Assembly (NCBI GenBank): GCA_947593355.1
Contig: CANQDO010000006.1
Coordinates: forward strand, 1-50,331
Direction: 5' to 3'
From: an uncultured Clostridia bacterium
GTDB lineage: Bacteria; Bacillota; Clostridia; TANB77; CAG-508
Length of the DNA: 50,331 bases
Shown here: in pieces, positions 1-50,315 of the stretch
Layout of the letters: each line of letters opens with the position of its first letter
How positions within the stretch are numbered: the first letter of the stretch is position 1
Notes under the pieces: model-generated
What the model was told of the DNA's origin: nothing
Seen by the model: only the letters and a program-made list of their open reading frames with translations
Database searches by the model: none
Made by a program: the position numbers and the translations under genes

Positions 1-8
1 ATGTCCAA

Positions 9-65
9 AAAGTGCTATTTTTAGGACTTTTATTTTTTATGGACTTTTTCCTATATTATTTTTCA
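9..65 (+). repeat. Left copy of a repeat found inverted at both ends of the window
   Basis: Positions 9-65 match the reverse complement of 50259-50315 with about four differences, including the shared core ATGGACTTTTTCCTATATTA. Weaker similarity continues rightward into the IS110 left end (CCTC, an AT-rich hairpin, then GTTATAAT-like bases). This is direct sequence observation. I infer a repeated target context or the edge of a second IS110-type copy, which would also explain why an assembly stopped here. Confidence 0.7.
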
Positions 66-78
66 ACCTTTTTCCTCG

Positions 79-84
79 TATAAT
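79..84 (+). promoter_or_regulatory. -10 half of a predicted circle-junction promoter
   Basis: TATAAT lies two bases inside the predicted left end. In the linear insertion no good -35 precedes it. In a circle closed through the CT core, TTGACA at 1619-1624 would lie exactly 18 bp upstream. Such split promoters driving bridge RNA and transposase are known for IS110-family circles; this instance is inferred from sequence. Confidence 0.65.
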
Positions 85-90
85 GTAAAT

Positions 91-285
91 AAATTTATTA
101 TACGAATTTCTCCTTTCTTTGAAATTTGTTATAATATTTTTATAGACTCTGTGGATTAGTGTTTTTTCCTATCGCTTGACGATTTCTTTGAAAGGCTCTA
201 ACCACAGATGTTTGTTTATTTGTTAATTAGTTAGATAACGCATGACGTTTTATTTAGAACGAGGCTACATTAAGCAAACATTTTG
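91..285 (+). ncRNA. Predicted IS110 bridge RNA
   Basis: Three consecutive stem-loops lie directly upstream of the transposase, as in the bridge RNA of IS110-group elements. The 5' stem-loop pairs 97-102 with 130-135 and 105-110 with 121-126. The second pairs 148-159 with 198-208 (11 bp, A155 bulged) around a 38-nt loop; its sides TTTTTCCT (163-170) and GAAAG (190-194) match the flanks at the CT core, so it is the likely target-binding loop. The third pairs 208-218 with 271-281 (11 bp, one G-U) around a 52-nt loop; TAGTTAG (228-234) and ACGAG (259-263) match the element's own ends, so it is the likely donor-binding loop. The RNA ends are estimates: the 5' end from the junction promoter, the 3' end from the last stem. 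Confidence 0.72.
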
Positions 286-327
286 TGGATCACATTGTCT
301 AAATTTTATTTAAAAGGAGTATTCTCT

Positions 328-1506
328 ATGATTTATATTGGTATCGATGTTGCAAAGAACAAACATGATTGCTTTGCAATGAGCTCTGATGGAGAAATTT
401 TATTTGAAAGAATGACTATTCCGAATAATTTGAACGGATTTTATTCTTTATTCAACTCTATTTCTCAACTTAACGAAAGTTTTGAAAATATTAAAGTAGG
501 ACTTGAAGCTACTGGACACTACAGCAATAATATTCTTAACTTTCTGACATCAAAAGGATTTAATGTTTATGTCATTAATCCACTACAAACTAATCTTTTC
601 AGAAAAGGTCAAAGCCTTAGAAAGACCAAAACAGATAAGTTAGATGCTCGTTTTATTGCTACAATGCTTATCACAGAAAACTTAAAGCCCTACTCTAATT
701 TATCTTATCACATTTCTGAATTAAAGTCACTAGTTAGACATAGATTTCGTTTAGTTCACGAACGTTCTAAATTTAAAACCTCTCTTTCTAGGCTGGTTAC
801 ACTTATTTTTCCAGAATTAGAAAAAATCGTTTGGTCTATTTCTCAAAATTCTGTGCTTTATCTTCTTAATGAACTTCCTTCTGTAAAAGAAATTTCTAAT
901 TGCAATTTAAAACATCTTACTTCTATTTTAGAAAAATTTTCTAAAGGAAAATATAGTAGAGATAAAGCTATTGAAATACGTGAACTTGCTAGAAAATCTA
1001 TTGGTACTAATAGTCATTCTTTATCTTTTGAATTGAAACAAGTTATTCAGTCTGTTTTATTCTTACAATCACAAATTGATGATATTGATAAAGAATTGAA
1101 AACTTTAGTCGATGAACTTAATAGTCCAATAATGTCAATCCCTGGTATTTCTTATGTCTCTGCTGCTTTTATTTTAGCTGAAATTGGTGATATATATAAC
1201 TTTGATTCACCAGCTAAATTACAAGCTTTTGCAGGACTTGACCCCTCTACATATCAGTCTGGAAAATATTCTGCAACTCATTCATCAATGGTAAAACGTG
1301 GTTCTAAATACCTTCGTTGGGCTTTACTTAATGCTACAAGACTTGTTTGCATGCGTGATAAAACTTTTAATGATTACAAAAATATGAAACTCGCTGAAGG
1401 CAAGCATTATTTTGTAGCACTTAGTCATACTTGTAAAAAATTAATAAGAGTTATTTATTATTTATTAAAAACAAACAATTCTTATCAACAATCCAAAGTA
1501 GCTTAG
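328..1506 (+). CDS. IS110-family transposase (DEDD recombinase)
   Basis: A 392-residue recombinase that would excise and insert the element under bridge-RNA guidance. The N-terminal RuvC-like DEDD domain shows D7 (IGID), E60 (GLEATGHY), D103 and D106 (TKTDKLDAR). The C-terminal transposase_20 domain starts near residue 268 (MSIPGISYVSAA) and carries QSG with the candidate catalytic Ser311, then KRGSKYLRWAL. Length and domain order are normal for the family. I chose ATG 328 because AAAAGGAGT lies 7 bp upstream; the in-frame TTG at 283 falls in the bridge-RNA stem and has no ribosome site. No frameshift or stop is seen, so the gene is probably functional. Confidence 0.95.
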   Translation: MIYIGIDVAKNKHDCFAMSSDGEILFERMTIPNNLNGFYSLFNSISQLNESFENIKVGLEATGHYSNNILNFLTSKGFNVYVINPLQTNLFRKGQSLRKTKTDKLDARFIATMLITENLKPYSNLSYHISELKSLVRHRFRLVHERSKFKTSLSRLVTLIFPELEKIVWSISQNSVLYLLNELPSVKEISNCNLKHLTSILEKFSKGKYSRDKAIEIRELARKSIGTNSHSLSFELKQVIQSVLFLQSQIDDIDKELKTLVDELNSPIMSIPGISYVSAAFILAEIGDIYNFDSPAKLQAFAGLDPSTYQSGKYSATHSSMVKRGSKYLRWALLNATRLVCMRDKTFNDYKNMKLAEGKHYFVALSHTCKKLIRVIYYLLKTNNSYQQSKVA

Positions 1507-1618
1507 TTGATAGTGTTTCATACTCTTTTATAAAGCATTTTCATAAATGCTTATTTGTCATGCATTTTTCAATGTACAAATTTATATAAAATATTTTTAA
1601 CTTTTTTTCATTTTTCTA

Positions 1619-1624
1619 TTGACA
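1619..1624 (+). promoter_or_regulatory. Outward -35 (TTGACA) in the IS right end
   Basis: A consensus TTGACA lies 15 bp inside the predicted right boundary and points out of the element. In the inserted form only poor -10 candidates follow in the flank. It pairs with TATAAT at 79-84 when the ends are joined (18-bp spacer). Confidence 0.6.
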
Positions 1625-1668
1625 TTCATATAGTTAGTCTTTCTCTTTTGATAATTAATTTTCTAACC

Positions 1669-50084: not shown

Positions 50085-50258
50085 CTATTTTTTCCTTCCT
50101 ACAAATTAAAATTTCATTCTACACTTTCCTATATTATAAATAACCCATCTACATTTTTCAAGATTTTTCTAAAATTATTTGCCTTTAATTTATACATAGT
50201 ATATAATATACATAACAAATAAGAAAGAATATGTTTTAACATATTATGAGGTATAAGT

Positions 50259-50315
50259 TTGAAAAATAATATAGGAAAAAGTCCATGAAAAATAAAAGTC
50301 CTAAAGAGCACTTTT
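50259..50315 (-). repeat. Right copy of the inverted end repeat, with IS110-left-end-like sequence
   Basis: Reverse complement of 9-65 with about four differences. On the minus strand the similarity continues weakly (CCTCATAATATG, an AATATG / CATATT hairpin, CTTTCTTATTTGTTAT), parallel to the IS110 left end, but the guide stem-loops are absent. A decayed or target-like copy is likely. About 170 bp between here and the DUF1287 gene hold no gene. Confidence 0.65.

What the first reader, a model, noticed from the sequence alone, without database searches (positions are those of the whole stretch)
77..1640. IS110 element whose ends, CT core and guides can be deduced from sequence
Four short matches agree on one solution: loop 1 TTTTTCCT = 69-76, loop 1 GAAAG complementary to 1639-1643, loop 2 TAGTTAG = 1631-1637, loop 2 ACGAG complementary to 75-79, all around CT at 75-76 and 1639-1640. 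This is the logic of bridge-RNA recombinases (established for IS621 and relatives). The guides predict a pre-insertion site reading TTTTTCCTTTC. A weak point is that the left donor guide does not extend into the core.
Basis: partly seen in the sequence, partly recalled or inferred. Interest (0 to 1): 0.75.

Follow-up and report, generated by a model that had tools for sequence, protein, structure and literature searches.

The report
RNA-guided transposon aimed at gene starts
This is an intact IS110 jumping gene whose own guide RNA (a bridge RNA) picks the landing site, and across its relatives in Bacillota that guide is written to match the ribosome-binding (Shine-Dalgarno) sequence just before a start codon, so the element can settle in front of very many genes without breaking any.

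Summary
Relatives and multi-copy genomes put its ends at the predicted CT core (75-76 / 1639-1640). Across about 130 related loci the target-loop guides match their own flanks far better than shuffled ones, and the right donor guide covaries with the left end. The RNA fold is supported by compensatory changes. An orthologous empty site in a sister species reads exactly TTTTTCCTTTC, as predicted. The "weak point" (left donor guide stops before the core) is a trait of the whole clade and differs from IS621.

On the reverse strand the site is a Shine-Dalgarno (SD) sequence a few bases before a start codon (here GAAAGGAAAAATTTATG of a KAP-NTPase gene after comF). In the main clade 69 of 81 insertions have an ATG with an open frame 3-16 nt beyond the core, against 10% of comparable sites. 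Of 66 distinct guide pairs, 58 carry at least 5 nt of SD consensus (shuffled mean 24). SD targeting has one precedent, IS900, but I found no paper tying it to bridge-RNA guides. The neighbour at window 1-70 is another IS110-family element at the same SD. Mechanism is inferred; nothing was assayed.

The parts
75..76 (.). left CT core, end of the left target and start of the left end (LE)
69..76 (+). left target next to the insertion (TTTTTCCT); 69-70 are probably shared with or part of the neighbouring element X
77..327 (+). noncoding left end carrying the bridge-RNA gene
79..84 (+). TATAAT -10 box of the promoter formed when RE and LE join; 18 nt from TTGACA at 1619-1624 in the circle
   Evidence: sequence; 51 of 64 related junctions have TTGANN-(17 or 18)-TATRNT
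146..280 (+). bridge-RNA core (target loop + donor loop), covariance model R1 match, 146 bits; the full RNA probably runs about 90-285
   Evidence: fold z-score -5.45
149..207 (+). target-binding loop with its stem CTGTGG...CCACAG
162..170 (+). left target guide (LTG) TTTTTTCCT
190..194 (+). right target guide (RTG) GAAAG, pairs with CTTTC at 1639-1643
208..281 (+). donor-binding loop with its stem ATGTTTG...CAAACAT
228..234 (+). left donor guide (LDG) TAGTTAG, pairs with donor positions 0-6 and stops one nucleotide before the core
259..263 (+). right donor guide (RDG) ACGAG, pairs with CTCGT at 75-79
328..1506 (+). IS110 DEDD recombinase, 392 aa (PF01548 + PF02371), preceded by its own SD-like AAAAGGAG
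1507..1640 (+). noncoding right end (RE) with TTGACA -35 box at 1619-1624 and left donor TAGTTAG at 1631-1637
1639..1640 (.). right CT core
1639..1643 (+). right target CTTTC; on the reverse strand GAAAG, the upstream part of the SD of the targeted gene
1..70 (+). right end of a second, multi-copy IS110-family element (X) lying between this insertion and the start codon it targeted

Best explanation
Window 77-1640 (or equivalently 75-1638) is an intact IS110-group element working like IS621. Excision joins RE to LE, which builds a sigma-70-type promoter across the junction (TTGACA in RE, TATAAT in LE). That promoter transcribes a bridge RNA of about 195 nt from the LE. The recombinase uses its donor loop to hold the RE-LE junction and its target loop to hold the genomic site, and exchanges strands at the shared CT. 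The target loop encodes (T)TTTTCCT/CTTTC, which on the other strand is GAAAGGAAAA: the Shine-Dalgarno sequence of a gene. The element is thus aimed at translation-initiation regions. It lands with its LE facing the start codon. Because the core lies at the upstream edge of the SD, the gene-side piece keeps part of the SD, and the LE adds CGAGG or CAAGG in front of it. Many related elements in Clostridia and Bacilli carry differently worded guides with the same meaning, some reaching into the start codon. Shown here by comparison: boundaries, guide/flank covariation, RNA fold, empty site, SD/start-codon position. Inferred: RNA expression, circle formation, strand exchange, and survival of target-gene expression.
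For: Pfam DEDD_Tnp_IS110 and Transposase_20; homology to IS621 and ISCro4 of solved structure. Boundaries from relatives and multi-copy genomes. bRNA fold: 94% of cells paired, 14 of 23 pairs with two-sided changes, 53 such cells against 17.6 shuffled, slid controls at most 51% paired. LTG and RTG match own flanks. RDG covaries with LE: CTCG with CTCG 43 times, CTTG with CTTG 26 times, never crossed; LDG identity 0.95 in one register, at most 0.19 in shifted ones. Junction promoter in 51 of 64. Empty site TTTTTCCTTTC before a KAP-NTPase gene in G019. Start codon 3-16 nt away with ORF of at least 30 codons: 69 of 81 against 644 of 6632 control sites; 22 of 23 copies in four multi-copy genomes. 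SD match of at least 4 nt in 47 of 48 reconstructed sites. Guides alone: 58 of 66 with at least 5 nt of SD against 23.8 shuffled (max 36), only 2 on the wrong strand. Annotated start codons sit just outside the LE in several Lactococcus, Enterococcus and Leuconostoc plasmid copies.
Against: Copies are related, so counts are not independent events; distinct guide pairs were used to lessen this. A sister clade (LTG CAAATTACT) has guides that match its flanks but are not SD (1 of 11 with a start codon in range). In the window itself the start codon is not present, because element X separates it; the SD reading of this copy rests on the orthologous empty sites. In the guide statistics I kept loci whose left core reads CT, so core universality was not tested there. 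The one circular record found (1,563 bp) carries CTCACCT at the junction rather than a single CT, and may be an assembly product. No expression or transposition data.
Confidence: 0.92

Rival explanations
1. The SD/start-codon position is survivorship: insertions elsewhere kill or harm the host, so only intergenic ones are seen, and guides merely follow.
For: These are gene-dense genomes, and IS are generally tolerated best between genes (general knowledge).
Against: Intergenic bias alone does not place the core 6-9 nt from ATG on one strand only, nor put the SD consensus into the guide letters: 58 of 66 guide pairs with at least 5 nt of SD, 2 on the wrong strand; 85% against 10% of CCT/TCT sites in the same flanks. 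Survivorship may still be the reason why such guides were selected.
Confidence: 0.06
2. Target choice is by protein-DNA recognition and the loop matches are remnants copied from the target, not guides.
For: No biochemistry here; part of the matches are pyrimidine-rich.
Against: Guides differ between close relatives and flanks differ with them; donor guide and LE covary; the fold keeps the guides in loops; the IS621 precedent shows guide function (PMC11208160).
Confidence: 0.03
3. The element is decayed or immobile and the anatomy is a fossil.
For: Only one copy of the recombinase gene in this incomplete assembly.
Against: Intact 392-aa frame with the DEDD motifs in place, intact guides, near-identical RE/LE in relatives of other species, and a polymorphic site (present here, absent in G019 and G023).
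Confidence: 0.1

Closest known systems
IS621 and the IS110 group with bridge RNA in the left end (Durrant et al. 2024, PMC11208160; structure PMC11208158)
   Same: DEDD + C-terminal PF02371 recombinase domains; long LE; RE-LE junction promoter; target loop then donor loop; LTG/RTG/LDG/RDG layout; CT core; no terminal inverted repeats; handshake letters fit: TBL GC can pair with donor 6-7 (GT, one wobble), DBL G pairs with target C7.
   Different: Target is the SD/start region rather than REP elements; LDG pairs donor positions 0-6 and stops before the core, whereas the IS621 LDG pairs through the core C; RDG is contiguous (5 nt) rather than interrupted; recombinase 392 aa against 328, low overall identity.
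IS900 of Mycobacterium avium subsp. paratuberculosis (IS110 family)
   Same: Inserts at translation-initiation signals: target motif CATGNNNNNNTCTCCTT (PMC8141618, citing Doran et al. 1997), i.e. start codon and SD on the reverse strand in the same orientation.
   Different: IS900 goes between SD and start codon (own knowledge of the published site); the window clade cuts at the upstream edge of the SD. The guide RNA of IS900 was not examined here and no held paper links IS900 with bridge RNA.
IS1111 group / seekRNA (PMC11187229)
   Same: Guide RNA from a noncoding end sets the target.
   Different: In IS1111 the RNA lies downstream of the gene and subterminal inverted repeats are present; neither applies here.
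Element X, second IS110-family element in the same genome (window 1-70)
   Same: IS110-family recombinase, also lands beside reversed SD sequences.
   Different: Different ends (...TTTTTCAACCTT) and apparently the IS900-like position between SD and start codon.

Membership tests
[quoted passage not shown]
   148 and 83 bits, above cut-offs; IS621 match E 5e-21 with motifs GID, EATG, KTDxxDA aligned
IS110 family | no target duplication beyond a short core; no terminal inverted repeats | tested here: met
   ends shared by relatives are CCTCGTATAATG and ATAGTTAGTCT, not inverted copies of each other; only CT is common to both junctions; empty site has one CT
IS110 group (versus IS1111 group) | noncoding RNA region in the left end, LE longer than RE | tested here: met
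   LE 251 nt with bRNA, RE 134 nt
bridge-RNA systems | two stem-loops whose internal loops hold guides for target and donor, kept by covariation | tested here: met
   fold and pair counts; guide covariation
bridge-RNA systems | core dinucleotide included in all four guide pairings (as described for IS621) | tested here: not met
   LTG, RTG and RDG include the core; LDG does not, throughout the clade. Filed as a variant for that reason
bridge-RNA systems | promoter reconstituted at the RE-LE junction | tested here: met
   sequence level only: 51 of 64 junctions
bridge-RNA systems | RNA is expressed, bound by the recombinase and directs recombination | not testable with these tools
   needs RNA-seq and an in vitro assay
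IS110 family | circular intermediate | tested here: inconclusive
   a 1,563-bp circular record in Monoglobus holds only a related element, but its junction has CTCACCT instead of one CT
SD-targeting elements (IS900-like behaviour) | insertion at SD next to a start codon, in one orientation | tested here: met

The most novel reading that the evidence does not exclude
A Bacillota-wide clade of bridge-RNA transposons is programmed by its RNA guides against the translation-initiation region as such (SD, spacer, sometimes the start codon), a target present before most genes. Lineages have reworded their guides many times while keeping that meaning, and the LE end partly rebuilds the SD on the gene side, so that insertion is nearly harmless. 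IS900 would be an independent or distant case of the same strategy.
Probability: 0.75. Interest if true: 0.68.

Novelty: new variant of a known kind. Interest (0 to 1): 0.58.

Why it matters
It shows what natural bridge-RNA guides are for in a large group: a general, abundant and low-harm landing site, the ribosome-binding site, instead of a rare repeat. It would explain the 1997 observation on IS900 in guide-RNA terms, gives a large natural set of guide/target pairs for learning mismatch tolerance, and shows a donor guide that stops short of the core. It also suggests a test of whether such insertions tune expression of the gene behind them.

Tried and rejected
Rfam search of the window found nothing, so a model was built from the relatives instead. 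A search of viral contigs gave no relative. I first took 1-74 as host flank; it proved to be the end of element X. Because of that the window copy shows no start codon, which for a while looked like a failure of the SD idea until the sister genomes showed the empty site. An outward promoter from the LE towards the target gene was considered: the consensus scan found no more promoter-like sites than in shuffled sequence, so nothing is claimed. The circular 1,563-bp record was hoped to show a single-core junction and did not. The sister clade with LTG CAAATTACT was tested for SD targeting and does not fit. Automatic boundary calls failed for some loci (alternative ends such as TCACGTATAAT, two G828 copies); these were left out or redone. 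The catalytic serine could not be fixed by position counting on the phmmer alignment (landed on a neighbouring Tyr), so it is inferred from the aligned YxSG motif only.

Full report
WHAT IS THERE. Window 328-1503 encodes a 392-aa recombinase with both IS110 domains, homologous to IS621 and ISCro4 of known structure. It is preceded by a 251-nt noncoding left end and followed by a 134-nt right end.

BOUNDARIES. Five relatives with 85-94% protein identity share CCTCGTATAATG on the left and ATAGTTAGTCT on the right and diverge immediately outside (L027 informs the right end only). In four other genomes with 4-8 copies each, the shared sequence starts at or one to two bases before the CT core next to [CT]GTAT. 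In the three genomes where the comparison reached the right end (G745, G845, G669) it ends at the core or one to three bases past it, where all targets agree. This settles CT at 75-76 and 1639-1640.

EMPTY SITE. The insertion lies directly after comF (PF00156). In sister species G019 and G023 the same place is uninterrupted: comF ... AATTATCAAAAGAGAAAGGAAAAATTTATGGAAGAATTAG in G019, where the ATG starts a KAP-family NTPase gene. G023 differs by a few letters on the left (CTTTCCTTTC). The element therefore sits in the Shine-Dalgarno sequence (GAAAGGA) of the KAP gene.

THE LEFT NEIGHBOUR. Window 1-70 is not host DNA. It recurs, 97-100% identical, at seven other contig ends of this genome, and at 90% at the window's own right end. 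In G006 and G011 the same end is attached to an IS110-family recombinase gene (PF02371, PF01548). So a second IS110-family element, called X here, lies between this element and the KAP start codon. Its right flanks in about 20 insertions also begin with reversed SD-like sequence in most cases (CCTCC, CTCTCC, ACCTC and so on; judged by eye, no statistic), which suggests the IS900-like position between SD and start codon. Two different IS110-family elements have thus used one SD. A third, also multi-copy, has right ends at contigs C24, C40, C47, C54 and left ends at C16, C22, C29, with sites reading TCTCCT/CTCC[CT].

BRIDGE RNA. Nineteen homologous left ends align and fold into two stem-loops with internal loops. 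Counted on the alignment, 94% of cells pair, 14 of 23 pairs show changes on both sides, and 53 such cells are seen against 17.6 in shuffles; slid structures pair in at most 51% of cells. The window RNA 90-285 folds with z = -5.45. A covariance model finds this RNA in 62 of 385 genomes of the order and 49 of 391 of the class, and in Lactococcus, Enterococcus and Leuconostoc plasmid elements.

GUIDES. For 86 insertions with 52 distinct LTGs, positions 1-7 match the element's own left flank at 4.88 of 7, against 2.97 (sd 0.15, maximum 3.56 in 5,000) when flanks are dealt out anew. RTG positions 10-13 match 2.97 of 4, against 1.20 (sd 0.21). Inside the window's own subclade the same test gives p = 0.005 and 0.0003. 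RDG and left end covary (CTCG/CTCG 43, CTTG/CTTG 26, none crossed). LDG pairs donor positions 0-6 with identity 0.95, and at most 0.19 in neighbouring registers. In IS621 the LDG reaches the core C (PMC11208158); here it stops one base short in the members analysed. The handshake letters fit: TBL GC can pair with donor positions 6-7, DBL G with target C7 (sequence; concept from PMC11208158).

JUNCTION PROMOTER. RE carries TTGACA at 1619-1624 and LE carries TATAAT at 79-84; joined through one CT they are 18 nt apart. 51 of 64 related junctions have TTGANN-(17 or 18)-TATRNT. This matches the published life cycle of IS110 elements (PMC11208160). One 1,563-bp circular record (NZ_OY725734.1, Monoglobus) contains nothing but a related element, but its junction reads CTCACCT, two cores and CAC, so it is only weak support for the circle.

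TARGET. Reading the flanks on the reverse strand from the core, 69 of 81 main-clade insertions meet an ATG opening a frame of at least 30 codons within 3-16 nt, against 644 of 6,632 CCT/TCT sites in the same flanks and 7.5% of random positions. The commonest distances are 8, 9 and 6 nt, and 47 of 48 reconstructed sites contain at least 4 nt of SD consensus (44 at least 5). In four multi-copy genomes 22 of 23 copies fit. The guides themselves carry the signal: of 66 distinct guide pairs, 58 hold at least 5 nt and 51 at least 6 nt of SD consensus, against 23.8 and 8.0 in composition-preserving shuffles (maxima 36 and 17); on the wrong strand only 2 reach 5 nt. In G745 and G845 the guides reach into or up to the start codon (reverse complements GATAGGAGAAATAGAT(A) and TTTAAGGAGAAAAAATGG; the real G745 sites read AGAAATAGATG). 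In plasmids of Lactococcus, Enterococcus and Leuconostoc, start codons annotated independently lie just outside the left end in several copies (L245 does not show it closely). A sister clade with LTG CAAATTACT follows its guide but not the SD (1 of 11), although several of those copies sit just upstream of an SD.

CONSEQUENCE FOR THE TARGET GENE (inferred). In the window clade the core is the upstream edge of the SD, so the gene keeps the downstream part, and the LE contributes CGAGG or CAAGG: 39 of 48 gene-side junctions still have at least 4 nt of SD. Other groups (G745, for example) split SD from start codon, as IS900 does. No outward promoter was found beyond chance, so the fate of transcription is open.

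WHAT IS KNOWN. IS110 bridge RNAs are established (PMC11208160, PMC11208158, PMC11187229). Targeting of translation-initiation signals is known for IS900 (Doran et al. 1997, cited in PMC8141618, with target motif CATGNNNNNNTCTCCTT). I found no held paper that mentions IS900 together with bridge RNA, and Durrant et al. do not mention Shine-Dalgarno, ribosome or IS900. The library lacks most subscription papers and preprints, so priority cannot be claimed. I file the element as a member of the IS110 group that fails one IS621 feature (core within all four guide pairings), and the clade as a variant in target and donor-guide register.

LIMITS. All evidence is comparative. Copies are related and counts are not independent. 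Loci whose left core is not CT were left out of the guide statistics. The genome is a fragmented assembly (76 contigs), and the window is one whole contig.

Noticed in passing
window 1-70 and 50249-50315: Both ends of this contig are right ends of a second IS110-family element (X), present at seven further contig ends in the genome; X flanks also look like reversed Shine-Dalgarno sequences.
   Followed up: partly
L002-L005, L048, L050, L051 (own genome contigs C47, C54, C40, C24, C16, C22, C29): A third, multi-copy IS110-type element whose body is missing from the assembly; its ends share TAGTTAGTCT / CTCGTATAATA and its sites read TCTCCT/CTCC[CT].
   Followed up: partly
L029, L030, L057, L059, L060, L089, L092: Sister clade with LTG CAAATTACT or CAACTTACT; guide and flank match nearly perfectly but the target is not SD; L059, L089, L092 share ATCTCAGC(G/A)ACAA before the site, an unidentified repeated target.
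   Followed up: no
L239 (NZ_OY725734.1): A deposited 1,563-bp circular 'plasmid 10' of Monoglobus pectinilyticus is just an IS110 element; probably a transposition circle or an assembly product rather than a plasmid.
   Followed up: partly
L036 (G180): Relative whose RNA lacks most of the donor loop although target loop and recombinase gene remain; its left target guide AATCCTCCT matches its left side.
   Followed up: no
L074, L075, L130, L167, L192: Subgroup with donor guide CGTGA and left end TCACGTATAAT; the core may be CA rather than CT there.
   Followed up: no
L106, L134, L135 (G669): Three copies sit in repeated sites GCATCACACCCACCT with similar longer flanks, possibly a repeated gene family leader.
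   Followed up: no
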